Assembly (NCBI RefSeq): GCF_029953595.1
Contig: NZ_CP124535.1
Location: 1,116,001-1,180,000, forward strand
Source of the DNA: Fuscovulum ytuae
Lineage (GTDB): Bacteria; Pseudomonadota; Alphaproteobacteria; Rhodobacterales; Rhodobacteraceae
Length of the DNA: 64,000 bases
Direction: 5' to 3'
This document shows, in pieces, positions 6,638-63,647 of the stretch. Made by a program: the position numbers and the translations under genes. Each line of letters starts with the position of its first letter. The stretch's first letter is position 1. The notes under the pieces were generated by a model. The model worked only from the letters and a program-made list of their open reading frames with translations, was not told the DNA's origin and did no database searches.

Positions 6638-6647
6638 ACCGTTATCG

Positions 6648-6667
6648 GATGGGCCATCCGGCCCATC
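6648..6667. terminator. Hairpin between the RayT relic and the SRPBCC operon
   Basis: GATGGGCC at 6648-6655 and GGCCCATC at 6660-6667 form a perfect 8-bp stem with a 4-base loop. It lies just downstream of the minus-strand SRPBCC gene ending at 6684. There is no T-tract on either side, so it may be another REP unit and not a true intrinsic terminator. Confidence 0.35.
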
Positions 6668-6683
6668 CCGCCTTCGGTCCCCG

Positions 6684-8370: not shown

Positions 8371-8575
8371 TCCGCTAACTATCAGCCCCAGCCGCGCCGC
8401 GAAAGAAAAAACTTAGCCAGTTATCAAACTATCCGCATTCCCCGCGAAATTCGGAAAGTGAAATATCGATTTTTGCATCAAATCCCTCCCCTCACGATGT
8501 TGCGAGCGGCGCGCCCCGGAATATATGTGTGCCGTTGCATACCGAAGACCCCAATACCCAAGACGGAATAAACGC

Positions 8576-42489: not shown

Positions 42490-42499
42490 GGACCCGCGC

Positions 42500-43972: not shown

Positions 43973-44914
43973 TCAGCCCTGCGCATCGAGCCAACGAGCA
44001 CACATCACCTCGGCATCCGCGATGAACCGGGCATTGCGCGCCGTTCCCCCGTCTTCCCGCAAACGGGGCACGATCCAACCCAGATAGGTCACCGCCCGCA
44101 AGGCCATGAACAAGGGCAGCGGGGCCGCATCGACCGCACGGAGTTGGCCATAGCCCGCCAGCAGCGCCGCTTCCAAGGCCGGGTAGTCCGGTTCTTGACG
44201 ATGCTTTAGCAAGGCAGTTGCGATGTCGAACAGACGAAACCCCCAGCCGCCATCATCGAAATCAATCAGATGCAGCCTGTCGCCATCCAAAAGCACATTC
44301 TCGCCCACCAGATCGGCATGGATCAGCCCCAGATCCAAGGCACCACCAATCCGCGCCAGTTCCGCCGCAGCCTTTTCCCGAAACCGCAAGAAAAAGGCCC
44401 GCTGATCAGCTGACAGCGTCGGGTTGTCCCAGAACTGGCCCCAGATCGGGGCTTTACCCAGCAACCCTTCAGCATCCCATCGCAGGCGGATGAACCCTTC
44501 CGGCGGCGTCCAAGCATCGCAAGCTGCGTGGAACCGCGCCATCTCGGCCCCCAAACGCGCAAAGACGGCAGGCGCATCCGACAGGGCCAAGGGCGCGCGC
44601 CCCTCTCTCAACGGTTGTCCCGGTAGCCACTGCAACAGATCGACGCGGAACCCCTCGACCTGTTCCAGCAACGCCCCAGATGCAGACGCGATCGGTTGCG
44701 GCACCGAAAGCCCGGCCTTCCGCATCGCGGCCATCCAGTCCAATTCGGACCGCAATTCCGCATCGCTGCGATAGCCCGGCCGCCGCAGCCGCAGCGCAGC
44801 CGTGCCCCAAGGCGCCACAACCCGGAACACCCGGTTCTCTCGCCCCGCAACAAGGCGACACTCCGCCCCTGACAGCCCCCACAGCGCCAGCACCTTTTCG
44901 ACCGGATCGGTCAT
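43973..44914 (-). CDS. APH-superfamily kinase paired with a phospho-lyase
   Basis: 313 residues of the aminoglycoside phosphotransferase fold. Catalytic loop: LIHADLVGENVLLDG with Asp at about 201 and Asn at 206; metal-binding Asp in LHLIDFDDGGWGFRLFDIA. N-terminal lobe: RLVAGRENRVFRVVAPWG and AALRLRRPGY with a Lys-equivalent Arg. Members phosphorylate small alcohols such as homoserine, choline or hydroxylysine. Its ATG overlaps the stop of the class III PLP gene (ATGA), and this pairing resembles human HYKK with its phospho-lyases. It is the last gene of a 12-gene run. Confidence 0.82.
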   Translation of the reverse strand: MTDPVEKVLALWGLSGAECRLVAGRENRVFRVVAPWGTAALRLRRPGYRSDAELRSELDWMAAMRKAGLSVPQPIASASGALLEQVEGFRVDLLQWLPGQPLREGRAPLALSDAPAVFARLGAEMARFHAACDAWTPPEGFIRLRWDAEGLLGKAPIWGQFWDNPTLSADQRAFFLRFREKAAAELARIGGALDLGLIHADLVGENVLLDGDRLHLIDFDDGGWGFRLFDIATALLKHRQEPDYPALEAALLAGYGQLRAVDAAPLPLFMALRAVTYLGWIVPRLREDGGTARNARFIADAEVMCARWLDAQG

Positions 44915-46188
44915 GCCGCCGGATCCAGATCGGTCAGCACCGCCTCCAACGTGCCAATCAGGATATCCAGATGCTCTGCGCCAAAGGGCATGGGCGGGCG
45001 GATCTTCAACGTGTTGCGATGCCGCCCCAGCTTTGACAACAACACCCCCCGGTCGCGCATCGCATTTACCACGCGGTCGGCATAGGCCGGGTCCGGTGTC
45101 TTGGCGGCGCGGTCCGTCACAAATTCCGCGCCGAAGACCATGCCGCTTTCTCGCACATCCCCGATCATCGGAAACCGCTCCGCCAGCGCCCGCAACCGCG
45201 CGGCGGCAAGGGTGCCAATGCGGCGGGCGTTGCCTTGCAAGCCCTGCGCCTCCACCTCATCCAGCACCGCCATCGCCACGGCACAGGACACAGGGTTCCC
45301 CCCAAAGGTGTTGAAATAGCGAAATGCCGTGCGGAACCGCGCCATCACGGCCTCGCTTGTCACCACCCCCGCAACCGGATGACCATTCCCCATCGGCTTG
45401 CCCAACGTGACCACATCCGGCACCACCCCCTGCCGCTGATGCGCCCAGAAATGGCTGCCGGAGCGGCCAAAGCCCGACTGAACCTCGTCGCAGATCAAAA
45501 GACCGCCCGCCCGCCGCGCCACCTCGGCCGCAGGACGCAGCCAGCCCTCCGCCTGCGTCGGAAAGCCTTCATTCAAAAACAGCGGGCAAACGATCAGAGC
45601 GGCAAAGCCAACCCCGGACCGTTCCAGATCGGCCACTGCCGCCTCGACCTTTGCGGCAAAGCGCTGCCCATCGGGATCGGGGATGCGATAGCTGTCCGGG
45701 GCCTCTACATGCCGGATCAGCCCACCAAGGCCGAACCCAACTTCCGGCACATTGCTGCGCGACAGATGGCTTACCAGCGCGGTATTGCCGTGATACGTGG
45801 CATCGGTGGCCACGATCCCCCTCTTGCCCGTCATCGCTTCGGCCATCCGAAGGGCGATGTCATTCGCTTCGGATCCCGTGCAGGTCAGGATGGCGGTCTT
45901 CAACGGTTCGGCAAAGGTGGCGGTCAGCCGGTCGACATAGTCAAGAATGCCCTCGTGCAGATAGCGCGTATGGGTGTTCAAGGTGCCCGCCTGCCGACAC
46001 AGCGCCTCCACCACGCGCGGGTTGCAATGGCCCACATGAGCCACATTGTTATAGCAATCGAGGTAACGCCGCCCCTCGGCATCCCAAAGCCAGACCCCTT
46101 CCCCTCGCACCAGATGGACGGGTTCGTCGTAAAAGGTCGACATGTTCGGCCCCAAAAGCGCCCGCCGCCGTGCCATCAAATCGGTCAT
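44911..46188 (-). CDS. Class III PLP enzyme resembling amine phospho-lyases
   Basis: 425 residues. Besides general class III aminotransferase features (Schiff-base Lys at about 264 in TLGKPMGNGHPVAGVV), it carries LDCYNNVAHVGHCNPRVVEA near the N-terminus and LGRHRNTLKIRPPMPF at the C-terminus, which are marks of the AGXT2L/ETNPPL group. Members of this group remove ammonia and phosphate together from O-phosphoethanolamine or 5-phosphohydroxylysine, giving an aldehyde. The kinase gene directly following would make such a phospho-amine. A simple transaminase remains possible. Confidence 0.85.
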   Translation of the reverse strand: MTDLMARRRALLGPNMSTFYDEPVHLVRGEGVWLWDAEGRRYLDCYNNVAHVGHCNPRVVEALCRQAGTLNTHTRYLHEGILDYVDRLTATFAEPLKTAILTCTGSEANDIALRMAEAMTGKRGIVATDATYHGNTALVSHLSRSNVPEVGFGLGGLIRHVEAPDSYRIPDPDGQRFAAKVEAAVADLERSGVGFAALIVCPLFLNEGFPTQAEGWLRPAAEVARRAGGLLICDEVQSGFGRSGSHFWAHQRQGVVPDVVTLGKPMGNGHPVAGVVTSEAVMARFRTAFRYFNTFGGNPVSCAVAMAVLDEVEAQGLQGNARRIGTLAAARLRALAERFPMIGDVRESGMVFGAEFVTDRAAKTPDPAYADRVVNAMRDRGVLLSKLGRHRNTLKIRPPMPFGAEHLDILIGTLEAVLTDLDPAA

Positions 46189-46203
46189 TCCCGCCCTTTC
46201 GCT

Positions 46204-47001
46204 TCAGAATGCCACGGATACATGGCCGAAGGGGCCGAAGTCGGCCTCGATACGGCTGCCAACCGGGGCCTCCACCGGGCGGATGAAACTGCCCGACAGC
46301 AGAACCTCCCCCGCCGCGATCCCTTGGCCATAGCGGGCCAGCCGATGCACCAGCCACAGGATGCCCGTCACCGGATCGTCCAGAACGCCGGCGCCAAGGC
46401 CTGTCTCTTCCACCACCCCATCGCGTTTCAGGATCGCGCCGACCCAGCGCAGGTCAACCGCGTCGACCTGATGCCGCGCCTTGCCCAGAACGATGCCTGC
46501 ATTGGCGGCATTGTCGCTGACCGTGTCGGTGATGATCCGCGACCGCCCCGTTGCGGGATCGACGCGCAGGATGCGCGTATCAAGGATTTCCAGCGCCGGG
46601 CAGACATAATCGGTCGCCGCCAGAACATCAGCCCGCGTCACCCCTTCGCCCGCCAAGGGGGCTTTCATGATGAAGGCGATCTCAGCCTCTACCCTCGGCT
46701 GGATGAACCGCCCCTCAGGCACCACCGCCCCATCGGAAAACAGCATGTCATCCAACAAAACGCCCGAATCCGGCGTGTCGATCGCCAGCGCCTGCTGCAT
46801 CGCGCGGCTGGTCAACCCGATCTTCCAGCCAATCCGCCTTGCCCCCGCAGCCTCCTTCAGCGCGACAAAAGCCGCCTGCACGGCATAGGCCTCATCCAGC
46901 GTCATCCCCGGATGGGCAAGGGACATAAGCCCGCATTGCACTCCCGTTACCTCGGCCTTGCGCAACATCTGCGCCGCCGCCGCGATGTCATCCCCAGTCA
47001 T
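46204..47001 (-). CDS. hpaH: 2-oxohept-4-ene-1,7-dioate hydratase-like enzyme
   Basis: 265 residues from the ATG at 47001 (HpaH about 267). Family features are MTLDEAYAVQAAFVALK, IGWKIGLTSRAMQQAL, the metal-binding IQPRVEAEIAFIM and the C-terminal GEVLLSGSFIRPVEAP. The enzyme hydrates the dienoate in homoprotocatechuate degradation. Its start overlaps the FAH-family gene by 4 bases. In the same fold group are 2-hydroxypenta-2,4-dienoate hydratases, but the neighbours favour the C7 substrate. Confidence 0.85.
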   Translation of the reverse strand: MTGDDIAAAAQMLRKAEVTGVQCGLMSLAHPGMTLDEAYAVQAAFVALKEAAGARRIGWKIGLTSRAMQQALAIDTPDSGVLLDDMLFSDGAVVPEGRFIQPRVEAEIAFIMKAPLAGEGVTRADVLAATDYVCPALEILDTRILRVDPATGRSRIITDTVSDNAANAGIVLGKARHQVDAVDLRWVGAILKRDGVVEETGLGAGVLDDPVTGILWLVHRLARYGQGIAAGEVLLSGSFIRPVEAPVGSRIEADFGPFGHVSVAF

Positions 47002-47849
47002 TCGTCGGCCACCCCATTGCGCAAAAGGCCGATCCCTTCGGCCTCCACCTCCACAACATCGCCGGGGCGCAGCCAGATCGGCGGGTCGAACCGCGCCCCC
47101 GCCCCGGTGGGTGTGCCGGTCACGATGATGTCGCCCGGCACCAGCGTGGTAAAGGTGCTGACATAGGCGATCTGCCGCGCCACGGGAAACAGCATCCGCC
47201 CTGTCCGATCCGCCTGCCGCACCGCGCCATTCACCCGGCAGGTCAGCGCCACATCCAAGATTTGGGCGGGGTCGCGGAATGGAACCAGCCCCGGCCCCAT
47301 CGCCCCCGACCGATCCCAATTCTTGCCCTGCGTCACGTTGAACTTGGCATGGCGCACCCAATCGCGGATCGTGCCCTCATTGCACAGCGTCAGCGCCGCG
47401 ATATGGCCGAGCGCCTCAGCCTCCGGGATGCGTCGCCCACCCTTGCCGATCACCACCGCAATCTCGCCCTCGTAATCCAGCTGCGCGCTTTCAGGCGGGC
47501 GGATCAGCGGTGCGCCATGCCCGTTAAAACTGCGCGGAAACCGCACGAAAAGTGACATGTTCGGCGGGGCCTCCTGCCCGTCGCGGTATTCGGCATTGCG
47601 GTCGGGGAAATTGACCCCCACGCAGATAATCTTTTCCGGGTCGCGGATCGGGATGTCATAGGTGAAAGCACCCTCCCGATGCGTCACCACCCGCCCCTTG
47701 GCCGCCTCTAGAACAAGGTCCATCCCCCCTGCCGCGATCACCTCGCGCAGGCCGGGCCATTGCGGGAAGTCGGGTGACAGCGCGATCACCCCGCCCTCTC
47801 CCACCACACCCCAAAAGGCACGCCCCTCTGCCGTGAAACTGACCAGCAT
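46998..47849 (-). CDS. FAH-family hydrolase/decarboxylase, HpaG-like
   Basis: 283 residues from the ATG at 47849, preceded by GGGAGGGGAAGG; a TTG six codons earlier lies within that ribosome site. Metal-binding residues are in LDYEGEIAVVIGKGGR (E..E) and CNEGTIRDWV, with VTGTPTGAG near the C-terminus. In this setting it probably isomerises or decarboxylates 5-carboxymethyl-2-oxohex-3-ene-1,6-dioate-type intermediates (HpaG/HpcE role). The chain is one FAH domain, as opposed to the two-domain enterobacterial HpaG. Confidence 0.83.
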   Translation of the reverse strand: MLVSFTAEGRAFWGVVGEGGVIALSPDFPQWPGLREVIAAGGMDLVLEAAKGRVVTHREGAFTYDIPIRDPEKIICVGVNFPDRNAEYRDGQEAPPNMSLFVRFPRSFNGHGAPLIRPPESAQLDYEGEIAVVIGKGGRRIPEAEALGHIAALTLCNEGTIRDWVRHAKFNVTQGKNWDRSGAMGPGLVPFRDPAQILDVALTCRVNGAVRQADRTGRMLFPVARQIAYVSTFTTLVPGDIIVTGTPTGAGARFDPPIWLRPGDVVEVEAEGIGLLRNGVADE

Positions 47850-47863
47850 CCTTCCCCTCCCGC

Positions 47864-48844
<981 letters not shown>

Positions 48845-48882
48845 CGCGGCTCCTTTCTTCTCTCTGCGGTCGGTCAGGCCCC

Positions 48883-50388
48883 TTAAAGGCCCAACCTCTG
48901 CATTTTGTGGCGGCCAAGCGCGAAGGCCGTATTCTTCGTTTCCATGTAGAAATCGAAGGACCAATCCCCGCCATCACGCCCGATACCCGACGCCTTCACC
49001 CCGCCAAAGGGGGTGGGCAAGTGGCGGACATTTTCGGAATTCACCCAGATCATCCCAGCCTCCAACCCATCGCTAAAGCGCAGCGCGCGGGTCAGGTCAT
49101 TGGTCCAGACATATCCCGTCAGACCGTAGGCAACGCCATTGGCGATGGACAAAGCCTCGGCCTCATCGCGAAAGCGGAGAGAGGTAAGAAAAGGCCCAAA
49201 CACCTCTTCCTGCGCGATCCGCATATCCGGGCGTGCATCGGTGAACAGCGTGGGCCGCATAAACCAGCCCTTATCCCCCAGCCTTTCGCCCCCCGCCGCC
49301 AGCGTCGCGCCCCCGGCCTGCCCGATGGCCACATAGCCCGCCACCTTGTCGAAATGCGTGCGGTGGATCAGTGGCCCCACCTCCGTCGCCGGGTCCAGCG
49401 GATGGCCCACGCGAATGCGGTTCGCCCGCTCCACCAGCCGCGCATGAAAGGCATCCGCGATGCTCTCTTGCACCAAGAGGCGCGAGGATGAGGTGCAGCG
49501 TTCCCCATTCAGCGAATAGATCATGAAGATCACCGCATCGAGCGCCCGCTCCAGATCGGCATCCTCGAACACCACGACGGGGTTCTTCCCCCCCAATTCG
49601 AAATGGACACGTTTCAACGTGTCCGCCCCCTGTTTCATGATCGCGCTTCCGGTGCGCGATTCCCCCACAAAGGCTATCGCCTTGATATCGGGATGTTCGG
49701 TCAGGGCCTTGCCCGCCCCCTCGCCCATGCCGTTGACAAGGTTCAAGACACCGGGCGGCAACCCCGCCTCATGGCAGATCTCGGCCAGAAGCCGCGCGGT
49801 CAGGGGGCTGAACTCCGCAGGCTTATGCACCACCGTGCATCCCGCCGCCAAGGCGGGCGCGATCTTCCATGTCGACAGCATGAAAGGCGTATTCCACGGC
49901 GTGATCACGCCCACCGGGCCGATGGGATGTCGGCTTGTGATGTTCAAATGATCGGGCGAAGGCAGGCTTTGCCCATCTCGTGCACCGGGGGCAAGATCGG
50001 CGAAAAAGCGGAAATTCTCGGCCCCGCGCAGCGCGGCCTTGGACATGAAGCGCCACGCCTGCCCGGTATCCCAGCATTCGCAAAGGGCGATCTCTTCCGC
50101 CCGCGCCTCGATCATATCCGCGACGCGATGGAGCAGCGCCTTGCGTTCCGCCCCCGGCATCGCGGCCCAGGCCGGAAAGGCCGCCTTGGCCGCCTGCGCC
50201 GCTTGGTCCACCGTCGCCGCATCGCCCAGCGCCACCGTTGCAATCAGGCTGTCATCGACCGGGGATCGCGTCTCGAACCACGTCTCCCCCGCCACATCCT
50301 GCCCGCCGATCAGGTTGAGGATACCCCCCGCCCGGAACCGCGCCAGATGACCCTCCAGCCGGGCCAGATGGGTGGCAAGATCGGTCAT
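48883..50388 (-). CDS. hpaE: 5-carboxymethyl-2-hydroxymuconate semialdehyde dehydrogenase
   Basis: 501 residues of the aldehyde dehydrogenase fold: PVGVITPWNTPFMLSTWK, general-base Glu in VHFELGGKNPVVVFEDADL and nucleophile in LNGERCTSSSRLLVQ. The RCTS catalytic environment and position next to hpaD and hpaF support the HpaE assignment: oxidation of the ring-cleavage semialdehyde. It overlaps hpaF by 4 bases. Confidence 0.9.
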   Translation of the reverse strand: MTDLATHLARLEGHLARFRAGGILNLIGGQDVAGETWFETRSPVDDSLIATVALGDAATVDQAAQAAKAAFPAWAAMPGAERKALLHRVADMIEARAEEIALCECWDTGQAWRFMSKAALRGAENFRFFADLAPGARDGQSLPSPDHLNITSRHPIGPVGVITPWNTPFMLSTWKIAPALAAGCTVVHKPAEFSPLTARLLAEICHEAGLPPGVLNLVNGMGEGAGKALTEHPDIKAIAFVGESRTGSAIMKQGADTLKRVHFELGGKNPVVVFEDADLERALDAVIFMIYSLNGERCTSSSRLLVQESIADAFHARLVERANRIRVGHPLDPATEVGPLIHRTHFDKVAGYVAIGQAGGATLAAGGERLGDKGWFMRPTLFTDARPDMRIAQEEVFGPFLTSLRFRDEAEALSIANGVAYGLTGYVWTNDLTRALRFSDGLEAGMIWVNSENVRHLPTPFGGVKASGIGRDGGDWSFDFYMETKNTAFALGRHKMQRLGL

Positions 50389-50777
50389 GTCGTCTCTCCC
50401 GGCAGATAGCGGCGGATGGAGGATGTCTTGGGCGAAAGCGCGGGATCAATCTCGCGCATCTCGAAACTCAGCATGAAAGACGAGGTGGCCAGAACCTCGG
50501 CACAGAACGCCTCGGCGGCGGCAAAAATGCTTTCCGTCGCGCGCCGCTTGGCCTCGGCCTCGCGCCCGCCGCGCAGACGCAAGGAGATGTCGAGGAATGC
50601 ATGGTCGGGATTGCCATCCGCGATCACCACATGACTGCAAGCCGTGGCCCGCACGCGGATACCAGCAAGCGGCAGAATACCCGTCGCCACCGCCGCATCC
50701 CGCAACACGGCGCAGAGCGCGGCGATATCCAGACGCTCTTCCAGATTTGCGGAATAGTCGATCTGGATATGTGGCAT
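50385..50777 (-). CDS. hpaF: 5-carboxymethyl-2-hydroxymuconate delta-isomerase
   Basis: 130 residues from the ATG at 50777. MPHIQIDYSANLEERLDI supplies the catalytic N-terminal Pro of the tautomerase superfamily; RATACSHVVIADG and AFLDISLRLRGGR are typical of CHMI. Active as a trimer, it isomerises the product of HpaE. Start and stop are tied to the neighbours: 4 bases after the Tm-1-like gene and overlapping hpaE. A longer in-frame extension is out of frame similarity and rejected. Confidence 0.9.
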   Translation of the reverse strand: MPHIQIDYSANLEERLDIAALCAVLRDAAVATGILPLAGIRVRATACSHVVIADGNPDHAFLDISLRLRGGREAEAKRRATESIFAAAEAFCAEVLATSSFMLSFEMREIDPALSPKTSSIRRYLPGETT

Positions 50778-50781
50778 CCCC

Positions 50782-52020
50782 TTACCCTTTCGACAGAAGG
50801 CCCGCGCCGATCCAGCCATCCACCACCGCAAGCGCCGCCTCGGTAAAGGCCGGATCGTTGATATGTGCCCCGATTTCCACAAGCCGCACATTGGGCGGGC
50901 AGGCCTTGCGCACCTCATCGACATAGGCCGCCAACCCTTCGGCATCATGCAAGGGCGCGCCCGCGCGGTCCCATTCGTTGCCCCCTTCCAGCGGCAAAAG
51001 GAACACCGTCTCGCCCTTGGCACTGGCCAGCTTTTCCATCACCGCCCGCGCCATCATGCGCCGCTGTGGCCCATCCAGCACCACAGAGGACAAAAGGCGA
51101 TTATGCGCATGCGTCGGATTGGCGGCAAACCGCTCCGGGATCGGGTTCCAGCCCACGAAATCGACCAGATCATAGCATCCGATGGAAACCGCCTGCGGCA
51201 CGCCCCGCTGGCCGGCCGCCGTCATGCGGTCCGGCCCCGCGCTGATCGCCGATCCGAACAGATGATTGCCCACCTCTTGCGGTGCAAAATCCAGTACGGC
51301 GGCAAAGGCCCCCTCAGCGGCAAGGCTTTCGAAGGCGCGCCCACCCATCCCCGTGGCATGAAACACCGCCACCTCGAACCCCCGCGCCTCAAGCGCAGGC
51401 TTCAGGTCCACCATATAGCGCAGCACGGTCTTGCCAAAGCTGGTCATCCCGATCAGCGGACGGTCACGCCGGGGCAGTTCCACCGCCCGCGCGGCACCCA
51501 GAACCGCCCCCGCCGCCTGCGAAAGCGATGCCTTGCAGATAGAGTTCAGCCCATACAGCCCACCCGCCCAAAGGATCATCTGGATATCCGCGGGCAACCG
51601 TTCCGGCGGGATCATGGGCGAAAAGCTGACGGTCGAAACCACATATTTCGGCACCCCCAAGGGCAGTGCCGAACACAGATCGAGCGCAAGATCCGTCCCC
51701 ATCGTGCCGCCCAAAACGACAACACCATGGATCGCCCCCTCGGCCTGCAACCGCGCCGCAACCTGCGCCGACCCCCGCGCCATGATCTGCATGGCGACAT
51801 TCTCATCCTCGGCGGCGATGGCCTCGGCGATGCTTGCCCCCGCCGCCTCTGCCACCTGATGTTTGCTGATGTCGCAAGGCACCGACGGGTCGCCCAGCAC
51901 CGATACATCCATCGTCAGCACCCGCCCGCCCTGCGCGCGGATCACATCGGCCATATAGCCCAGTTCATCGTCCTTGGTGTCCCAAGTCCCGGCGACAAGA
52001 ATGGTGCGCGTCTCAGTCAT
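50782..52020 (-). CDS. Tm-1-like ATP-binding (UPF0261) protein
   Basis: 412 residues from the ATG at 52020. Family blocks: ILVAGTWDTKDDELGYMADV, VVVLGGTMGTDLALDLC, PKYVVSTVSFSP, DIQMILWAGGLYGLNSI and VAVFHATGMGGRAFESLA. Related to the N-terminal part of tomato Tm-1; in bacteria and fungi these genes are commonly paired with a TIM-barrel partner, absent here. Biochemical role uncertain; it lies within the aromatic operon between aldehyde dehydrogenase and hpaF, 1-base overlap with the former. Confidence 0.85.
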   Translation of the reverse strand: MTETRTILVAGTWDTKDDELGYMADVIRAQGGRVLTMDVSVLGDPSVPCDISKHQVAEAAGASIAEAIAAEDENVAMQIMARGSAQVAARLQAEGAIHGVVVLGGTMGTDLALDLCSALPLGVPKYVVSTVSFSPMIPPERLPADIQMILWAGGLYGLNSICKASLSQAAGAVLGAARAVELPRRDRPLIGMTSFGKTVLRYMVDLKPALEARGFEVAVFHATGMGGRAFESLAAEGAFAAVLDFAPQEVGNHLFGSAISAGPDRMTAAGQRGVPQAVSIGCYDLVDFVGWNPIPERFAANPTHAHNRLLSSVVLDGPQRRMMARAVMEKLASAKGETVFLLPLEGGNEWDRAGAPLHDAEGLAAYVDEVRKACPPNVRLVEIGAHINDPAFTEAALAVVDGWIGAGLLSKG

Positions 52021-53507
52021 CACAGTTGAATCCATGCCGTCTTCAGATCGGTATATTTCTCCAGCGCATGCAACGACTTATCGGCCCCATTGCCCGATTG
52101 CTTGGCCCCCGCCAAGGGCACGGTGACATCGGCCCCGCCATAGGTGTTCACATGCACCACACCCGCGCGGATGCCCCGTACCATCCGATGCGCCCGGCCA
52201 AGGTTCGCCGTCCAGACCCCTGCCGCCAACCCGTAATCGGTCGCATTGGCCAGATGCAGCGCCTCGGCCTCTGTCTCAAACGCTGTCACGGCAAGAACAG
52301 GCCCGAACACCTCTTCGCGGAACAGCCGCTGCGAAGGGGCCACCCGGGCCACGATGGCCGGGTCCATGTAATACCCCCCCGTTTCGGTCAGGATGCGCGC
52401 ACCGCCACGCACCACCTCGGCCCCTTCCGCGCGCGACTCGGCGACAAACCGCAGGTTTCCCTCCAACTGCGCCAGCGAATTGACCGCCCCGACCTGCGTG
52501 CCAAGGTCCAGCGGGTTGCCCACCCGCAGCGCGGCCGTCGCCTTGGCCAAAGCCTCCAGAAAGTCCTCCTGAACAGACGCCTCGACCAAAAGCCGCGACC
52601 CCGCCACGCAGACCTGACCCGCATTACGAAAGATCGCCATCGCCGCTGCCTTCGCCGCCGCCGCCAGATCAGGCGCATCGGCAAAGACGATGTTGGGCGA
52701 CTTGCCCCCCAGTTCCAGATAGCAGCGTTTCAGGTTCGACCGCGCGGAATATTCCAAAAGCCGCCGCCCTGTTGCCCCCGATCCGGTAAAGACCAGCACA
52801 TCTACATCCGGCGAAAGCGCCAGCGCCTCGCCCGTCACCCGCCCCTGTCCAGTGACGACATTGAACACCCCCGGCGGCACCCCCGCCTCCAGCGCCAATT
52901 CCGCCAAGCGCAGCAGCGTCAAGGATGCCGTCTCGGCTGGCTTCAGCACAACCGAATTCCCCATGGCCAGCGCGGGCGCCACCTTCCACGCCCCGATCAT
53001 CAGGGGGAAGTTCCACGGCACGATGGCCCCCACCACCCCCACGGGTTCGCGATGGATAAGCGCCAGCACATTGCCCGCCGTCGGTGCCACCTCGCCATAG
53101 ACCTTGTCGATGGCTTCCGCGTAATAGCGGAAGGTCGCCGCCGCACTGCCCGGCTCGGCCTTCAACGCCATCGAAATCTCGGTCCCATTGTCGCGCACTC
53201 CCAGAACAGCCAGTTCCACCGCATGCGCCTCGATCAGGTCCGCCAGACGGTGCAGCACACGCTTGCGATCGGCAGGGGCCAGCCCCGCCCAGCGCCCGTC
53301 GTCAAAGGCCGCCCGTGCCACGGCACAGGCCCGCGCGACATCCGCCGCACTCGCCCCCGCCAGTTCCGTCAACCGCGCCCCGTTGATGGGAGAGATCACG
53401 GGAACCGGCTCCCCCTCCCCCTCGACCCAGTTCCCGCCAATGAGCAGGCGCTGGGGCGGCACCGGTTTCGCTGCCAGACGGTCGATGGTTGCTTGGTCAA
53501 GTGTCAT
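52020..53507 (-). CDS. Aldehyde dehydrogenase, operon-encoded
   Basis: 495 residues. VGVVGAIVPWNFPLMIGAWK, YLELGGKSPNIVFADAPDL and NAGQVCVAGSRLLVEA mark an NAD-dependent enzyme of the betaine/gamma-glutamyl-aminobutyraldehyde dehydrogenase group. It could oxidise an arylacetaldehyde to the acid entering the HpaD pathway, or succinate semialdehyde leaving it; sequence alone cannot choose. Its start lies within the end of the tctA gene (11 bases overlap), so it is linked to uptake genes. Confidence 0.92.
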   Translation of the reverse strand: MTLDQATIDRLAAKPVPPQRLLIGGNWVEGEGEPVPVISPINGARLTELAGASAADVARACAVARAAFDDGRWAGLAPADRKRVLHRLADLIEAHAVELAVLGVRDNGTEISMALKAEPGSAAATFRYYAEAIDKVYGEVAPTAGNVLALIHREPVGVVGAIVPWNFPLMIGAWKVAPALAMGNSVVLKPAETASLTLLRLAELALEAGVPPGVFNVVTGQGRVTGEALALSPDVDVLVFTGSGATGRRLLEYSARSNLKRCYLELGGKSPNIVFADAPDLAAAAKAAAMAIFRNAGQVCVAGSRLLVEASVQEDFLEALAKATAALRVGNPLDLGTQVGAVNSLAQLEGNLRFVAESRAEGAEVVRGGARILTETGGYYMDPAIVARVAPSQRLFREEVFGPVLAVTAFETEAEALHLANATDYGLAAGVWTANLGRAHRMVRGIRAGVVHVNTYGGADVTVPLAGAKQSGNGADKSLHALEKYTDLKTAWIQL

Positions 53508-54999
53508 TGATCTGCCAGTCCTCGCGCGGGCGACGCGCCTTCAACGCCCCCCGGATGGTAAAGAAAATAAGGATGCACAGCCCCACCAACATGATGGCCG
53601 AAATGGGCCGGGTCACGAAGATTGACATGTCGCCCCCCGCGCCACCCACTGCTTGCCGGAAGCGGTTTTCAAGGATCGGCCCCATCACCACGCCCAAAAG
53701 GATGGGCGTCAGCGGCCAGCGATGACTGCGCAGGATAAAGCCCAAAATGGCAAATCCCATGGCCAGCCCCACATCCGAGAAATTGTAGTTCGACGCATAG
53801 GTCCCGATCAGCGACAAGGTCAGGATCGCCACCCCCAGGAACCGTTTGTTGATCAGCGCCGCCCGCGCAATCGTATTGGTCGCCAGCAGCAAAAACAGAA
53901 TGATGACCACATTCATTGCCAGAAGCGTCCAGTAAAGCCCCGCCACAAATTCCGGTCGGTTCAGAAACAGATCCGGCCCCGGAATGACGTTATGCACAAG
54001 GAAAACCGCCAGCATCATCGCGGTCAGCTCTTCACCCGGAATACCAAGCGCCAACATGGGGATCAGCGCCGCAGGCGGCACGGCATTGTTCGTGGCCTCG
54101 GACACGATAATCCCTTCCGGCGCGCCCTTGCCGAACAGATGCCCCTCTTTCGAAAGCTTTCGCGCCCAGACGTAATTCACCTGTTGCGCCAAAAACTCCC
54201 CCACCCCCGGCATGATCCCGCAGATGATGCCAAAGACCGATGAACCAAAGAGGGTGACCTTGTAGCGGAACACTTCCATGAAACCTTGGAAGAAATGCCC
54301 CTTCAGTTGCACTGTCTGCCGTGCTGTGTCCCGGCCCGTCAGCTGGATCAGCGCCTCAGACATGGCGAACAGCCCGATCACCATCGGCACCAGCGGGATA
54401 CCTTGGATCAACCAACTTTGCCCGAAACTGTAGCGTTGCGTGGAATAGGCCGTCTCGATCCCCACCGTTGCTAGGAAAAGACCAAAGGCCAGCGCCGCCG
54501 TCGCCTCTACCCGCCGCCCGCCATGCCCGATGACAACCAGAACCAGCGCCGCGAAGGCCAGCATGGCAAACTCCGCCGATCCGAAATTCTTGGCAACCTC
54601 CGCCAAGGGTTTCGTCAGCATCATCAAAGCCAGCACCGCCAGCACGCCCCCCACGAAGGACGATGAATAGGCAAGGCTCAGCGCCCGCCGCGCCTCGCCT
54701 CGGTCAACGAATGGCTTGGCCTCCAGCGCCGTCAGCACGGCTACCGGACTGCCGGGCGTATTGATCATCACAGCAGGAATCGCCGATCCGTAGGCCGACC
54801 CGCAATAAACCCCCAACAGCAGCGTCATCCCCGTCAGGGGCTCCATCGCGAAAGTGCTGGGCAGCAGGATCGAGATCGTCACCGCCGCCCCCGCGCCCGG
54901 AATGGCCCCCACGATGACGCCAAGGATCGCCCCGATGCACATGGTCACGAAGACCGCAGGATCGGCCAATTGCTGCAAGCCAAGAAGGATAAAGTCCAT
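53497..54999 (-). CDS. tctA: Tripartite tricarboxylate transporter large membrane subunit (TctA)
   Basis: 500 residues with about 12 membrane helices. The TctA signature GAIPGAGAAVTISILLPSTF and YCGSAYGSAIPAVMINTPGSP appears near the N-terminus and GIMPGVGEFLAQQ with EATNNAVPPAALIPMLALGIPG in the second half, as in the duplicated plan of the family. With TctB and the periplasmic TctC it takes up organic acids with an ion gradient. Gene order tctC-tctB-tctA is leftward. Confidence 0.95.
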   Translation of the reverse strand: MDFILLGLQQLADPAVFVTMCIGAILGVIVGAIPGAGAAVTISILLPSTFAMEPLTGMTLLLGVYCGSAYGSAIPAVMINTPGSPVAVLTALEAKPFVDRGEARRALSLAYSSSFVGGVLAVLALMMLTKPLAEVAKNFGSAEFAMLAFAALVLVVIGHGGRRVEATAALAFGLFLATVGIETAYSTQRYSFGQSWLIQGIPLVPMVIGLFAMSEALIQLTGRDTARQTVQLKGHFFQGFMEVFRYKVTLFGSSVFGIICGIMPGVGEFLAQQVNYVWARKLSKEGHLFGKGAPEGIIVSEATNNAVPPAALIPMLALGIPGEELTAMMLAVFLVHNVIPGPDLFLNRPEFVAGLYWTLLAMNVVIILFLLLATNTIARAALINKRFLGVAILTLSLIGTYASNYNFSDVGLAMGFAILGFILRSHRWPLTPILLGVVMGPILENRFRQAVGGAGGDMSIFVTRPISAIMLVGLCILIFFTIRGALKARRPREDWQINDT

Positions 55000-55010
55000 C
55001 GCCGCGCCTT

Positions 55011-55562
55011 TCAGAACCAGCGCAACAGCGCAAGGCGGATCGCATCGGGAAACAGGTCATAGACATCCGGCGCAGGCATCCACACGCCCAGCCCCGCCCG
55101 GAACACCCCGATCATGAAAACCGAAAGGCCAAACCCCGCCAGCATCCAGCGCGGCGCGGTCAAACCGACCCGCCACAAAAGGCCCAGCACGAAAATCAGC
55201 GTCGACGGGAAATAGCCCAGATGCTGGATCGCCCAGATATAGGCTGCGTAATGGGCCAGAAACTCCAAAGGCCGCAGCCAAGCCAGCATCTTGGCCCGCG
55301 CCTCTTCCCATTCTGCAGCCGTGGCTGGATTGGCCCGCAGATCGGCAATGTCGCGCCAAAGGGTGATCAGGTTCGCCCCGGTCAGCACCACCAGCGCCAC
55401 ACCCGGCGCAAAGGCCGGTCGCGTCCACCACCCGCCCGAGGCCTGCCCCGTGCGCGTGGCCACCCCGATCAGCGCCAAAAGCAAAACCGACACCGCCGCA
55501 AAGATCAGGGCCAGCGCCATGCTCTCCAATCGGTTTGCCTGTGGTTCGTCCGGGTCCGTCAT
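55011..55562 (-). CDS. tctB: Tripartite tricarboxylate transporter small membrane subunit (TctB)
   Basis: 183 residues with four predicted helices: MALALIFAAVSVLLLALIGV, FAPGVALVVLTGANLITLW, AAYIWAIQHLGYFPSTLIFV and MLAGFGLSVFMIGVFRAGLG. Weakly conserved in sequence, as usual, but size, topology and position between tctC and tctA identify it. The 11-base gap to tctA supports one transcript. Confidence 0.9.
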   Translation of the reverse strand: MTDPDEPQANRLESMALALIFAAVSVLLLALIGVATRTGQASGGWWTRPAFAPGVALVVLTGANLITLWRDIADLRANPATAAEWEEARAKMLAWLRPLEFLAHYAAYIWAIQHLGYFPSTLIFVLGLLWRVGLTAPRWMLAGFGLSVFMIGVFRAGLGVWMPAPDVYDLFPDAIRLALLRWF

Positions 55563-55619
55563 GCCAAGTCCCCGCCTTGTGGAAAGGGGCGCGACCCTCT
55601 GGCCGCGCCCCGCCAGACC

Positions 55620-56567
55620 TTATTCCGCCACGCCCAGCTTTTCGCGCAGCGCCCCCAGTTCGACCATGTCCTTGGCCACCTGCGCGGTCGATGCCGCCTG
55701 ATCCTGCCAATAGACCAGCGCCCCGGTCGTCTTGGCGATCTCTTGCGCGGCCTCGCTTGCTACAACGGTCTGCGCCACGGCGGCGATCTTGTCCTTCACC
55801 TCTTGCGGCGTGCCCTTCGGGACGAACAGCCCGTTCCACAGCGAAGATCCTTCCAGCGCAGGCACCTGTTCGCCCAGCGTCGCCACATCCGGCGTGATCG
55901 CTGTCCGGTCGCCGGTGATCGTGGCAAGAACCTTGATCTCGCCAAGGCAAGAGAGCACCAGCTGCGCCGTCGTGTTGATCACATCCGCATCGCCATTGGC
56001 CAGCGTGGAACAATCTACCGCGTCAAAGGCCGCCTCGGCGCTGAAGGCCCCGCCCAGTTCCTGAAGGCCATAGACCGTCATCATTGTAGGCTCGATCCCA
56101 TAGCCGAAATGGCCCAGACGCACGGGGTTCGCTTTCGAATATTCCGCCAGTTCCGCCATGTTGGAATAGGGTGCATCCCCCTTGGCCGCGATCAGGAAGG
56201 GATAGGTCAGGAAGATGCCCACAGGCTCCAACGCATCCGCCGCGAATTGCGCATCCGGCCCCATCGTCTTGACCGTCGGGATACCCACGGTCAGCGACCC
56301 AACCGTATAGCCATCCGGGGCCGCCGTTGCGACCTCAAGCCCGCCCACGACGCCACCGCCGCCCGGCTTGTTCACCACCGCCGCAGGCACCCCCGTCTGG
56401 CTTTGCAATTCCTCGGCGATCATCCGCGTCAGCACATCCTCCAGATCGCCGGGGGGCCACGGCACGATGAAGGTCACGGGCTTTTCGGGATACTCCGCCA
56501 ACGCGGCACCACTGAACGCAGCAAGGGCAAGCGCAGCCGCGCTGCCCAGAAGGGCGACTTTCTTCAT
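55620..56567 (-). CDS. tctC: Tripartite tricarboxylate transporter solute-binding protein (TctC)
   Basis: 315 residues from the ATG at 56567, with a signal peptide MKKVALLGSAAALALAAF...ALA. The mature part starts YPEKPVTFIVPWPPGD, the typical beta-strand and loop of the Bug/TctC family, followed by VVNKPGGGGVVGG and GTPQEVKDKIAAV. A disulfide could link the two Cys in DCSTLAN and VLSCLGE. It captures a carboxylated compound in the periplasm. It is first in the 12-gene operon and divergent from an IclR regulator. Confidence 0.93.
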   Translation of the reverse strand: MKKVALLGSAAALALAAFSGAALAEYPEKPVTFIVPWPPGDLEDVLTRMIAEELQSQTGVPAAVVNKPGGGGVVGGLEVATAAPDGYTVGSLTVGIPTVKTMGPDAQFAADALEPVGIFLTYPFLIAAKGDAPYSNMAELAEYSKANPVRLGHFGYGIEPTMMTVYGLQELGGAFSAEAAFDAVDCSTLANGDADVINTTAQLVLSCLGEIKVLATITGDRTAITPDVATLGEQVPALEGSSLWNGLFVPKGTPQEVKDKIAAVAQTVVASEAAQEIAKTTGALVYWQDQAASTAQVAKDMVELGALREKLGVAE

Positions 56568-56658: not shown

Positions 56659-57495
56659 ATGGCGGGGATGCAGCCTTTCCCGCCACCGCCGCAGGACGCC
56701 GGAAAGCCAATGGGAACCGTAGGAAAAGCTCTTGATCTGCTTGATCTTTTCACCCGCCAAAGGGCGCAGGTGGGGCTTTCTGAAATGGCCCGGCTGTCGG
56801 GGTTGAACAAGGCCACTTGCCACCGCCTGCTCACGGAAATGGAATCGCGCGGGCTGGTGGAACAGGTCGGCGCCGCCCGCGAATACCGCCTTGGCCCCGC
56901 CGTCCTGCGCCTTGCCGCCCTTCGCGAAACCGCCGTTCCCACCCGCGATGCAGCGATGCCCGTCCTGCAAACCCTCGCCCGCGCAACGGGGGAAACCGCG
57001 CATCTGTCGCTGCGCGAAGGCGACAAGCTCGTCACCCTCGCCTTCGCCTATGCCCCCACCCATGCCACCAAGGTGATGATGGAGGATGCCGACATCCTGC
57101 CATGGCATGCCACCTCATCCGGGCAGGCGGTTCTGGCCTTTCTGCCCGAAGCCGAACAGGTGGCCCTCCTGTCGCATCCGCTTCGTCGCCTGACGGATGT
57201 CACGGAAACCGATCCCGCCCGCCTGCGCGCCCGTCTGGATGACGTGCGCGCCAAGGGCTGCGCCGAAACGGCGGGCACCTTCGAATCCGATGCGCAAAGC
57301 GTGGCCGTCCCGCTGTTCCTGCATGGCGAGGCGGCGGTGGGCGCGCTTGGCGTCGCCGTCCCCGTCAGCCGCATGACGCCCGAACGGCAGACCCTGATCC
57401 GCCGCCACCTTGCGCTTGCCGCCACGGAAATCATCGATCTCTGGGGCGGGCATGTCCCCCCCGCCGTCACCGCGCTCTGGCAGCGCCTCACATGA
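56659..57495 (+). CDS. IclR family transcriptional regulator
   Basis: 278 residues from the ATG at 56659; an ATG at 56710 preceded by GGAAAG would give 261 residues and is equally plausible. Winged helix: VGKALDLLDLFTRQRAQVGL and ARLSGLNKATCHRLLTEME. Effector domain: AHLSLREGDKLVTLAF, PWHATSSGQAVLAFLP and a Cys/Glu region in AKGCAETAGTFESDAQSVAV. It is divergent from the tctCBA-hpa run and 19 bases ahead of the aminotransferase gene; it probably controls the former and perhaps both. Confidence 0.9.
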   Translation: MAGMQPFPPPPQDAGKPMGTVGKALDLLDLFTRQRAQVGLSEMARLSGLNKATCHRLLTEMESRGLVEQVGAAREYRLGPAVLRLAALRETAVPTRDAAMPVLQTLARATGETAHLSLREGDKLVTLAFAYAPTHATKVMMEDADILPWHATSSGQAVLAFLPEAEQVALLSHPLRRLTDVTETDPARLRARLDDVRAKGCAETAGTFESDAQSVAVPLFLHGEAAVGALGVAVPVSRMTPERQTLIRRHLALAATEIIDLWGGHVPPAVTALWQRLT

Positions 57496-57514
57496 TCCCC
57501 CGAAGGAGACAGCC

Positions 57515-58867
57515 ATGAAGGACGAGAACTTCCTCAAGGCGAACAATGCCCGCAGCCTGTGGCATCCGATGACGGCCCCTTCCGACAGCCTGAAGAACGC
57601 CCCCACCATCGTGACTGGCGCGCAAGGCGTGCGGATCACCGATCTTGACGGGCATGAGGTGGTGGATGCCGTCGGCGGCCTTTGGAACGTCAATCTGGGC
57701 TATTCCTGCCAGCCAGTGAAAGAGGCGATCACGGGCCAACTCGACCGCCTGCCCTATTATTCCATCTTCCGTGGCACCTCGAACGACTGCGTCATCGAAC
57801 TGGCCGAGGAATTGCGCACCTTCTTCGAACCCGATGGCCTGACCCGTGCCTTCTTCACCTCGGGCGGGTCGGATTCCGTGGAAACCGCCCTTCGCCTTGC
57901 CCGCCAATATCACAAGATCCGGGGCGAGGCGGGGCGGGTGAAATACCTCTCCCTGAAAAAGGGCTATCACGGCACGCATTTCGGCGGGGCCTCGGTCAAT
58001 GGCAATGCGAATTTCCGCACCGCTTATGAACCGCTGCTTCCCGGCTGCCACCACATCCCCGCCCCCTACACCTATCGCAACCCCTTCAACGAAACCGATC
58101 CCGCGCGCCTGGCGCAACTCTGCCTTGCCGCGCTGGAAGATGAGATCGCCTTCCAAGGTGCCGCCACCATCGCTGCCTTCATCATGGAACCGATCCTCGG
58201 CGCGGGCGGGGTGATCCCGCCGCATCCCTCCTTCATGCCGGGGGTAGAGTCGATCTGCCGCAAGCACGGCATCCTTCTGATTGCTGACGAGGTCATCACC
58301 GCCTTTGGCCGCACCGGGGCCTGGACAGGCAGCCGCCTCTGGGGCGTGAAACCCGATTTCGCCTGCACCGCCAAGGCCATCACCAATGGCTATTTCCCCT
58401 TCGGCGCGGTGATGATCGCCGAAAGCGTGGCGCAGGTCTTCGAATCCGATGCGACAGGCAAGGCCGCCATCGGCCACGGCTATACCTATTCCGGCCATCC
58501 CGTCGGCGCAGCAGCAGCACTTGCCTGCCTTGCCGAAACGAAACGCCTGAACGTGGTGGAAAACGCCGCCGCCCGTGGCACGCAGCTCTACGAAGGGGCC
58601 AAGGCCCTGATGGCCAAGCATGACATCATCGGCGATGTGCGTGGTGGGCATGGCCTGATGACGGCCATCGAATTGGTGGCAGATCGCGCCACCAAATCCG
58701 CCCCCGACAAGGCCATCCCCGCCCGCGTGCAAGAGGTGGCCTATCGTTCCGGCGCGATGATCCGCATCTCGGGGCCCAACATCATCCTCTCGCCCCCCCT
58801 GATCCTGACGGCGGCGGATGTCGACGTGATCCTGTCGGCCCTCGACGCCGGCTTCCTGGCGCTCTGA
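57515..58867 (+). CDS. Class III omega-aminotransferase
   Basis: 450 residues from the ATG at 57515, with GGAG 8 bases upstream. LWHPMTAPSDSLKNAPTIV, YYSIFRGTSNDCVIELAEEL, FFTSGGSDSVETALRLARQYH and ADEVITAFGRTGAW are typical of omega-amino acid:pyruvate/putrescine-type aminotransferases; the PLP Lys is in CTAKAITNGYFPFGA. It differs from the phospho-lyase-like paralogue at 44.9-46.2 kb in lacking the NNVAHVGH motif. It starts an operon with an HDAC-like hydrolase and a metallo-hydrolase. Confidence 0.9.
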   Translation: MKDENFLKANNARSLWHPMTAPSDSLKNAPTIVTGAQGVRITDLDGHEVVDAVGGLWNVNLGYSCQPVKEAITGQLDRLPYYSIFRGTSNDCVIELAEELRTFFEPDGLTRAFFTSGGSDSVETALRLARQYHKIRGEAGRVKYLSLKKGYHGTHFGGASVNGNANFRTAYEPLLPGCHHIPAPYTYRNPFNETDPARLAQLCLAALEDEIAFQGAATIAAFIMEPILGAGGVIPPHPSFMPGVESICRKHGILLIADEVITAFGRTGAWTGSRLWGVKPDFACTAKAITNGYFPFGAVMIAESVAQVFESDATGKAAIGHGYTYSGHPVGAAAALACLAETKRLNVVENAAARGTQLYEGAKALMAKHDIIGDVRGGHGLMTAIELVADRATKSAPDKAIPARVQEVAYRSGAMIRISGPNIILSPPLILTAADVDVILSALDAGFLAL

Positions 58868-59975: not shown

Positions 59976-59986
59976 AAGAGAACAGC

Positions 59987-60853: not shown

Positions 60854-60905
60854 CAAGTCCGCCCGCCCGTGGCAGGGTCACCGCACCCCGCCACGCGACA
60901 GGACC

Positions 60906-62290: not shown

Positions 62291-62360
62291 CAAGATTTTC
62301 CTTTACATATTTATAAGCCCCATCATTATGCAAAAAACCCTATTCGGCAAGGAGGCATAA

Positions 62361-63617: not shown

Positions 63618-63647
63618 TCAAAAGAACAAAGAAAAGGGAGTGACACC

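What the first reader, a model, noticed from the sequence alone, without database searches (positions are those of the whole stretch)
43973..56567. A 12-gene operon joining a kinase/phospho-lyase pair to homoprotocatechuate cleavage: possible route for beta-hydroxylated aromatic amines
Seen: twelve minus-strand genes with gaps or overlaps of a few bases (two slightly larger) run from tctC to an APH kinase, including hpaF, hpaE, hpaD, an HpaG-like FAH gene and hpaH, then a PLP enzyme with AGXT2L/ETNPPL-like motifs. Known: ETNPPL-type enzymes split beta-phosphorylated amines into aldehyde, ammonia and phosphate. Inference: phosphorylating the benzylic OH of noradrenaline or octopamine and eliminating it would yield (di)hydroxyphenylacetaldehyde; the operon aldehyde dehydrogenase would make (homo)protocatechuate-type acid for HpaD. 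I do not know of an annotated operon with this full set.
Basis: partly seen in the sequence, partly recalled or inferred. Interest (0 to 1): 0.85.

Follow-up and report, generated by a model that had tools for sequence, protein, structure and literature searches.

The report
Phosphorylating route for hydroxylated aromatic amines
A twelve-gene bacterial operon appears to feed adrenaline-like aromatic amines into a known ring-breaking pathway by first putting a phosphate on them and then splitting it off together with the nitrogen, a route that could give genes to an old enzyme activity still without any.

Summary
In detail: twelve co-directional genes, tctC to an APH kinase, gaps at most 57 bp. 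HpaE, HpaD and HpaH pass curated cut-offs. The PLP enzyme is nearest to solved phospholyases. The kinase is nearest, by sequence and fold, to an aminopropanol kinase (6ef6), whose substrate shares the CH(OH)-CH2-NH2 unit of noradrenaline and octopamine.
New evidence ties the pair to homoprotocatechuate. In a class sample, 5 of 6 genomes with this phospholyase (>=60% identity; window genome included) carry HpaD over its cut-off, against 2 of 379 others; the sixth carries the unrelated LigB-type HpaD. Within the order: 17 of 24 (>=64%), 5 of 25 for distant homologues, 51 of 223 without a match. hpa genes recur beside the pair in several gene orders, some with HpaB or an aromatic decarboxylase.
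The window genome has no HpaB, so catechols such as noradrenaline are likelier inputs here. Substrates are inferred, not shown; 4 of 24 order genomes lack both HpaD types. Known chemistry in a new combination; my paper searches listed none describing it.

The parts
55620..56567 (-). tctC: substrate-binding protein of a tripartite tricarboxylate transporter (uptake)
   Evidence: PF03401 99.7 bits; gene limits
55011..55562 (-). tctB: small membrane subunit
   Evidence: PF07331 40.7 bits
53497..54999 (-). tctA: large membrane subunit
   Evidence: PF01970 391.6 bits
52020..53507 (-). aldehyde dehydrogenase (PuuC-like), proposed arylacetaldehyde dehydrogenase
   Evidence: PF00171 536 bits; best NCBIfam PuuC 544 bits, below its cut-off 850; homologue (>=55% identity) in 44 of 56 context-defined loci
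50782..52035 (-). UPF0261 (Tm-1-like) protein, role unknown; a related solved structure holds acetovanillone
   Evidence: PF06792 and PF23189; 9mpy E 9e-73 and Foldseek rank 1 by E-value (TM 0.55; Tm-1 entries reach 0.74); in 47 of 56 loci
50385..50777 (-). hpaF: 5-carboxymethyl-2-hydroxymuconate isomerase
   Evidence: PF02962 133 bits
48883..50388 (-). hpaE: 5-carboxymethyl-2-hydroxymuconate semialdehyde dehydrogenase
   Evidence: TIGR02299 758.9 bits, cut-off 638.35
47864..48844 (-). hpaD: 3,4-dihydroxyphenylacetate 2,3-dioxygenase (vicinal-oxygen-chelate type)
   Evidence: TIGR02295 403.5 bits, cut-off 321.4; start
46998..47849 (-). FAH-fold gene, HpaG-like decarboxylase/isomerase
   Evidence: PF01557 209.6 bits; HpaG C-terminal model 144 bits, below cut-off 276.4
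46204..47001 (-). hpaH: 2-oxo-hept-4-ene-1,7-dioate hydratase
   Evidence: TIGR02312 370.8 bits, cut-off 351.5
44911..46188 (-). class III PLP enzyme of the phospholyase (ETNPPL/AGXT2L) type, proposed arylethanolamine-phosphate phospho-lyase
   Evidence: PF00202; 5g4i E 5e-111 and 6tor E 5e-102, next PDB family 1e-52
43973..44914 (-). APH-fold kinase, proposed arylethanolamine kinase
   Evidence: PF01636; 6ef6 aminopropanol kinase nearest by sequence and fold
56659..57495 (+). divergent IclR-type regulator, likely regulator of the operon
   Evidence: PF01614, PF09339; an IclR homologue of this kind in 30 of 56 loci
57410..58867 (+). class III amine transaminase-like gene (listed ORF; true start probably after the IclR stop)
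   Evidence: PRK07481 717.9 bits, cut-off 575; nearest solved: omega-transaminase 5lh9, then 6s54; in 45 of 56 loci

Best explanation
The operon encodes a catabolic route for 2-amino-1-(hydroxyphenyl)ethanols, in this genome most likely catechol forms such as noradrenaline. Step 1 (inferred): the APH kinase phosphorylates the benzylic, beta-hydroxyl group with ATP. Step 2 (inferred): the PLP phospholyase eliminates phosphate and releases ammonia, giving (di)hydroxyphenylacetaldehyde. Step 3 (inferred): the operon aldehyde dehydrogenase makes 3,4-dihydroxyphenylacetate. Step 4 (family-level assignment, well supported): HpaD opens the ring; HpaE, HpaF, the HpaG-like FAH and HpaH carry the product on; an HpaI-type aldolase elsewhere in the genome would finish. 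The neighbouring amine transaminase may handle amines without the beta-hydroxyl (inferred). In rhizobia the same set often comes with HpaB and a flavin reductase, so 4-hydroxyphenyl amines such as octopamine would fit there.
For: (a) Linkage: two or more of hpaD/hpaE/FAH/hpaH within the fetched stretch (about 10 kb each side) in 22 of 96 phospholyase loci with neighbourhood data, needing at least 12 changes on a quick gene tree; none among the 22 housekeeping-context loci. (b) Genome co-occurrence: class sample 5 of 6 vs 2 of 379 (Fisher 1.8e-9; by genus 4 of 5 vs 2 of 272, 3e-7); order sample 17 of 24 vs 51 of 223 (4e-6), 8 of 20 and 5 of 25 in lower identity bands. The window genome is one of the 6 and of the 24. 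(c) Replacement by an unrelated enzyme: of 18 genomes with the phospholyase but without VOC-type HpaD, 7 carry LigB-type HpaD (6 over cut-off, 1 in two partial pieces), against 0 of 42 order-sample controls lacking both; within the order sample alone 3 of 7 vs 0 of 42. (d) Kinase: 6ef6 aminopropanol kinase is nearest (profile E 5e-64; Foldseek rank 1, TM 0.85). (e) PLP enzyme: the two best solved matches are phospholyases; model PRK06149 matches the phospholyase strongly and the kinase weakly (38 bits) in different parts of one protein. (f) HpaB in 10 of 56 loci, each with hpa genes, and a flavin reductase-like gene in 11; DOPA/tyrosine-decarboxylase-like gene in 6 of 56. (g) A named R. leguminosarum plasmid holds HpaB, flavin reductase, ALDH, permease, IclR, UPF0261, HAD, transaminase, phospholyase, phosphotransferase, HpaR, isomerase, HpaE, HpaD, gabD, FAH, HpaH, HpaI within about 20 kb.
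Against: No activity is shown. 4 of 24 order-sample genomes with >=64% phospholyase have neither HpaD type; in the locus set 4 of 51 (L042, L046, L050, L057) likewise, and two of the 44 counted as HpaD-positive have only a partial match below cut-off. Many HpaD genomes lack the phospholyase (51 of the 223 order-sample genomes without a match at E <= 1e-140). 34 of 56 context-defined loci show fewer than two hpa genes nearby. Transporters of the TctC kind are known mainly for carboxylates (recalled). The second locus in the same genome has the pair with transporter, demethylase-like and UPF0261 genes but no hpa genes nearby; none of the six loci with the demethylase-like gene has two or more hpa genes. 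A Gemmobacter hpa cluster has UPF0261 and HAD but no phospholyase in the 25 kb shown. The nearest characterised kinase and phospholyase act on small non-aromatic amines. Roles of UPF0261 and the transaminase are unexplained. Shared ancestry inflates all Fisher values.
Confidence: 0.68

Rival explanations
1. The pair handles small non-aromatic amino alcohols (ethanolamine, 1-amino-2-propanol) and shares an operon with hpa genes only because both are accessory catabolic modules.
For: Nearest solved relatives include an aminopropanol kinase and an ethanolamine-phosphate phospho-lyase. A sister group occurs as a pair in housekeeping surroundings (22 loci). The own genome's second pair has no hpa neighbours.
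Against: Co-occurrence with homoprotocatechuate dioxygenases of two unrelated families, at least 12 changes of hpa linkage on the tree, HpaB and aromatic decarboxylase in some of the same loci. In the 55-58% identity band HpaD is only at background (5 of 25).
Confidence: 0.15
2. The PLP enzyme is an aromatic-amine transaminase (tyramine, dopamine) and the kinase does something separate.
For: Class III fold shared with omega-transaminases; phenethylamine transaminases would yield the same aldehydes (general knowledge).
Against: It is far closer to two solved phospholyases (5e-111, 5e-102) than to any transaminase (1e-47 or weaker); a separate amine-transaminase-like gene is in the same locus in 45 of 56 cases; all 56 loci keep the kinase.
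Confidence: 0.07
3. The route is for a carboxylated or N-methylated relative, such as a beta-hydroxylated aromatic amino acid or adrenaline/synephrine, that is first decarboxylated or demethylated.
For: TctABC transporters mostly carry carboxylates (recalled); DOPA-decarboxylase-like genes in 6 of 56 loci and a sarcosine/dimethylglycine-dehydrogenase-like gene in 6 of 56. The own genome has a decarboxylase 58-60% identical to those, but far away, near cysS.
Against: Neither gene is in the window operon; most loci lack both; none of the six demethylase-type loci has two or more hpa genes nearby. It extends rather than replaces the main reading.
Confidence: 0.1

Closest known systems
Microcompartment-associated aminopropanol kinase (6ef6; that its substrate is 1-amino-2-propanol is recalled) and the amino-alcohol kinase plus phospho-lyase route of Erwinia (recalled)
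   Same: APH-fold kinase on the hydroxyl of an amino alcohol; aldehyde formed later
   Different: No microcompartment genes among the genes examined; linked to aromatic ring cleavage; proposed side group is aryl, not methyl. PMC6620236 (passages read) treats a PLP enzyme of that microcompartment cluster as an aminotransferase.
Ethanolamine-phosphate phospho-lyase / AGXT2L family (6tor, 5g4i)
   Same: Nearly full-length alignment and shared N47-N48, R75, Y132-H133-G134, K264
   Different: Positions that separate the 56 context-defined loci from the 22 housekeeping ones, e.g. R290 (55 of 56; mostly G in the other) and position 130 (mostly A or H, H also in 6tor; mostly N in the other); proposed bulkier substrate
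Homoprotocatechuate (hpa) meta-cleavage pathway
   Same: HpaD, E, F, H and an HpaG-like FAH in one operon
   Different: No HpaB in operon or genome, no HpaI in operon; the pair follows hpaH, where HpaI stands in several relatives
Octopamine and synephrine dehydratases EC 4.2.1.87/88 (recalled, genes unknown to me)
   Same: Same net conversion of octopamine or synephrine to 4-hydroxyphenylacetaldehyde
   Different: Proposed route spends ATP and needs two enzymes

Membership tests
Class III phospholyase (ETNPPL/AGXT2L-like) | Class III aminotransferase fold with PLP lysine | tested here: met
   PF00202 248 bits; K264 in at least 98% of 78 rows and in 5g4i and 6tor; that it binds PLP is by family knowledge
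Class III phospholyase (ETNPPL/AGXT2L-like) | Closer to solved phospholyases than to transaminases | tested here: met
   5g4i 5e-111, 6tor 5e-102, next (dialkylglycine decarboxylase) 1e-52, first transaminase 1e-47
Class III phospholyase (ETNPPL/AGXT2L-like) | Phosphate and ammonia elimination activity | not testable with these tools
   needs enzyme assay
Amino-alcohol kinase of the APH fold | Catalytic H-x-D-x4-N and D-F-D motifs (roles recalled) | tested here: met
   H199, D201, N206, D218, D220 invariant in 44 sequences
Amino-alcohol kinase of the APH fold | Nearest solved relative is an amino-alcohol kinase | tested here: met
   6ef6 by profile and fold
Amino-alcohol kinase of the APH fold | Phosphorylates a beta-hydroxy amine | not testable with these tools
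   needs enzyme assay
Homoprotocatechuate meta-cleavage pathway | HpaD, HpaE and HpaH over curated cut-offs | tested here: met
Homoprotocatechuate meta-cleavage pathway | HpaG decarboxylase/isomerase | tested here: inconclusive
   FAH gene 144 bits, cut-off 276.4
Homoprotocatechuate meta-cleavage pathway | HpaI aldolase in the operon | tested here: not met
   none in the operon; seven PF03328 matches elsewhere in the genome, the best 46% and 44% identical to a rhizobial HpaI
4-hydroxyphenylacetate degradation (HpaBC entry) | HpaB hydroxylase | tested here: not met
   no PF11794 match in the own genome at E <= 1e-20
RMM/AUT microcompartment | Shell proteins in the locus | tested here: not met
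   no shell domain among the operon genes and the flanking genes scanned; rest of the genome not searched

The most novel reading that the evidence does not exclude
Roseobacters and rhizobia carry a phosphorylative pathway for arylethanolamines (catecholamines, octopamine, synephrine): kinase plus phospholyase remove the benzylic hydroxyl and the nitrogen in one elimination and feed homoprotocatechuate cleavage. It would supply genes for the octopamine/synephrine dehydratase conversion, which to my recollection has none. A bolder addition not excluded: UPF0261, with the HAD-family hydrolase found in 27 of 56 loci, transiently modifies the ring or an aryl ketone in the same route.
Probability: 0.62. 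Interest if true: 0.75.

Novelty: new variant of a known kind. Interest (0 to 1): 0.64.

Why it matters
If true, neuroactive amines made by animals and plants have a dedicated bacterial catabolic route in many Rhodobacterales and Hyphomicrobiales, with an unusual solution to the benzylic hydroxyl: phosphorylate and eliminate instead of oxidising to mandelate-type products. It would correct annotations such as 'homoserine kinase', 'phosphotransferase' and 'aspartate aminotransferase family protein' seen in the five named pair-bearing records I opened and make the genes behind octopamine and synephrine dehydration testable in culturable model strains.

Tried and rejected
Ten paper searches ran. 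None listed a paper that by title or abstract start describes this operon or an arylethanolamine phospholyase; I saw listings only, one search listed 20 of 1,584 and 20 of 21, and the library holds only open-licence papers. The first HpaD census over loci chosen by phospholyase similarity (44 of 51 context-defined, 11 of 21 housekeeping, 5 of 8 other) is not a clean control, because the housekeeping genomes are related strains and one genome held both types; the class and order samples replaced it. 16 of the 112 phospholyase rows of the tree (class-sample loci without a wider fetched stretch) were left out of the neighbourhood counts. A C2-type hydroxyphenylacetate hydroxylase was looked for in the own genome: seven PF08028 matches, four of the seven scanned, all acyl-CoA-dehydrogenase-like; so an unrecognised hydroxylase is not excluded. 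No inverted repeat was found around the tctC-iclR spacer. Position differences between the groups could not be mapped to a pocket because no coordinates were available. The UPF0261 lead: the solved relative Saro_1862 held acetovanillone (title); whether it is the MarK kinase named in PMC13101465 (passages) is my inference, since the MarK paper is not held. PMC12167813 (abstract, outline and an empty term search) describes a different, ATP-grasp-type kinase. PMC11837543, PMC5028733, PMC4207490 and PMC6620236: passages only.


Full report
Observation. The twelve-gene run is real. All genes lie on the minus strand from 56567 to 43973, with spacers of at most 57 bp and several overlaps. Families: tctC, tctB, tctA, aldehyde dehydrogenase, UPF0261, hpaF, hpaE, hpaD, FAH, hpaH, class III PLP enzyme, APH kinase. 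HpaD, HpaE and HpaH pass curated cut-offs; the FAH gene is only HpaG-like. Divergent from tctC, after a 91-bp spacer, lies an IclR regulator, followed by a class III amine-transaminase-like gene.

The pair. The PLP enzyme matches two solved phospholyases best (5g4i 5e-111, ethanolamine-phosphate phospho-lyase 6tor 5e-102), with a wide gap to the next family at 1e-52. The kinase model (44 sequences, mean pLDDT 96.7) has 6ef6, the microcompartment-associated aminopropanol kinase, as first hit by fold (TM 0.85) and by profile (5e-64). 1-Amino-2-propanol (substrate recalled) differs from octopamine and noradrenaline in bearing methyl instead of aryl on the carbinol carbon. NCBIfam PRK06149 aligns weakly with the kinase at its N-terminal part (38 bits) and strongly with the phospholyase at its C-terminal part (388 bits), which suggests that fused versions exist.

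Neighbourhoods. With own-genome and 13 class-sample stretches, 96 phospholyase loci had neighbourhood data, about 10 kb each side where contigs allowed; 16 further tree rows had none and were left out. 56 have at least one of the transporter, UPF0261, transaminase, ALDH or hpa genes nearby (a group defined by context), 22 have housekeeping neighbours (RF-1-like gene, NAPRTase, vitamin-transporter-like gene) and 18 neither. Among the 56: kinase 56, UPF0261 47, transaminase 45, ALDH 44, hpaH 23, hpaF 23, FAH 22, hpaE 22, hpaD 21, HpaB 10, decarboxylase 6, demethylase-like 6. 22 of 56 have two or more of hpaD/hpaE/FAH/hpaH; 0 of 22 housekeeping loci do. On a quick phospholyase tree this needs at least 12 changes. 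All 10 HpaB loci are among the 22; none of the 6 demethylase loci is. In G310 (L119) the order is hpaF-E-D-FAH-H-I-phospholyase-kinase on one strand, with an HpaB-family gene downstream. In L054 the hpa genes lie between phospholyase and kinase. In L106 (Rhizobium alvei) a window-type phospholyase (79%) sits inside a rhizobial-type cluster. The window operon is itself mosaic: tctA up to 86% identical to L087, phospholyase 85% to L039.

Genome co-occurrence. Class sample, 385 genomes: phospholyase >=60% identity in 6 (window genome included), HpaD over cut-off in 7, both in 5 (Fisher 1.8e-9; by genus 3e-7). Three further genomes have HpaD-like matches below cut-off. Relatedness inflates this, so I repeated it inside the order (292 genomes). 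VOC-type HpaD occurs in 17 of 24 genomes with >=64% phospholyase (window genome included), 8 of 20 at 59-63%, 5 of 25 at 55-58%, and 51 of 223 without a match at E <= 1e-140. The signal belongs to the close subfamily, not to phospholyases in general. Then the discriminating test: HpaD has an unrelated LigB-type counterpart. Of 18 genomes with a phospholyase and no VOC-type HpaD, 7 have the LigB type (6 over cut-off; in L095's genome two partial pieces), against 0 of 42 order-sample controls with neither. The controls are consecutive handles of the same family, while 11 of the 18 lie outside that sample; within the order sample alone it is 3 of 7 against 0 of 42. With both types counted, the class sample is 6 of 6 and the order sample 20 of 24. 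What is shared is then the reaction on homoprotocatechuate, not one hitch-hiking gene. The LigB type was searched in these 60 genomes only.

Which amine? HpaB was searched in 45 genomes: the window's and those of 44 of the 80 relative loci. 38 of the 45 have VOC-type HpaD; 15 of these have HpaB, 23 do not; HpaB without HpaD was not seen. By record title 13 of the 15 are Hyphomicrobiales (rhizobia and kin). The window genome (completeness 100) has none. So here the ring most likely arrives as a catechol, while many rhizobia can start from 4-hydroxyphenyl amines. An unrelated hydroxylase is not excluded. The decarboxylase in 6 loci, 4 of them with hpa genes in the same stretch, is nearest to a DOPA decarboxylase (7xin, 5.5e-115 for the L074 copy). 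A sarcosine/dimethylglycine-dehydrogenase-like gene in 6 loci would suit N-methyl amines, but not next to hpa genes.

Named strains. The R. leguminosarum ATCC 14479 plasmid holds the set from HpaB to HpaI with gabD. Pseudosulfitobacter sp. and Shinella (pyridoxal-dependent decarboxylase inside the hpa operon) hold variants. R. pomeroyi DSS-3 has the pair and hpaE-hpaD-FAH-hpaH on one megaplasmid, far apart. Leisingera has the pair with IclR, transaminase and ALDH, no hpa genes in the stretch. Annotations name the kinase 'homoserine kinase' or 'phosphotransferase' and the lyase an aminotransferase.

Against. No activity is shown; 4 of 24 order-sample genomes lack both HpaD types; many HpaD genomes lack the pair; 34 of the 56 loci show fewer than two hpa genes nearby; the transporter type suggests a carboxylate; the second copy in the same genome (L125) has no hpa neighbours; a Gemmobacter hpa cluster carries UPF0261 and HAD without the pair nearby. 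UPF0261 and the transaminase remain unassigned; UPF0261's best solved match by E-value held acetovanillone, which fits an aromatic substrate but gives no reaction.

Verdict. A phosphorylative arylethanolamine pathway joined to homoprotocatechuate cleavage is the best reading (0.68). Chemistry and families are known; the combination and distribution appear undescribed in the searches listed under Tried and rejected.

Noticed in passing
G000:C1:3653000-3672900 (L125): Second copy of the module in the same genome: IclR, tctCBA, phospholyase (68% identical), kinase, sarcosine/dimethylglycine-dehydrogenase-like protein, UPF0261, an FMN oxidoreductase and an SDR, with no hpa genes nearby; perhaps a parallel route for an N-methylated substrate.
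   Followed up: partly
window 50782-52035: UPF0261 (Tm-1-like) gene travels with the pair in 47 of 56 loci; its best solved match by E-value, Saro_1862, held acetovanillone, and a HAD-family hydrolase is in 27 of 56 loci. A possible aromatic-substrate enzyme of unknown reaction.
   Followed up: partly
window 40397-43966: Convergent plus-strand set: flavin reductase (resembling a hydroxyphenylacetate hydroxylase reductase, below cut-off), luciferase-like monooxygenase, aldehyde dehydrogenase. Homologues (38, 64 and 59%) stand beside a close phospholyase in Pacificoceanicola (L041).
   Followed up: partly
window 58869-60853: Histone-deacetylase-fold gene and metallo-beta-lactamase-fold gene after the transaminase; the latter recurs between transaminase and phospholyase in L051, L055, L057 and L120. 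The HDAC fold might deacylate N-acyl amines.
   Followed up: no
window 60675-64000: GntR regulator, class I glutamine-amidotransferase gene, and, by clustering with L081 and L045 members, P450-like and glutamine-synthetase-like genes; the last two recur near the phospholyase in L045, L054, L066, L081, L089. Looks like a gamma-glutamylation route for an amine.
   Followed up: partly
L015, L083, L096, L098-L101, L103-L105, L107-L118: 22 sister phospholyase loci, with a kinase beside nearly all, in a conserved housekeeping neighbourhood (RF-1-like gene, NAPRTase, vitamin-transporter-like gene); substrate unknown, possibly phosphoethanolamine.
   Followed up: partly
G000:C1:758522-759625 (L151, L152): Aromatic amino-acid decarboxylase-like gene, 58-60% identical to those found in six relative loci, beside cysS in the window genome.
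   Followed up: partly
L154 (Shinella plasmid) 5798-10078: Two genes annotated hpaD in one cluster, possibly one of each unrelated type; not tested.
   Followed up: no
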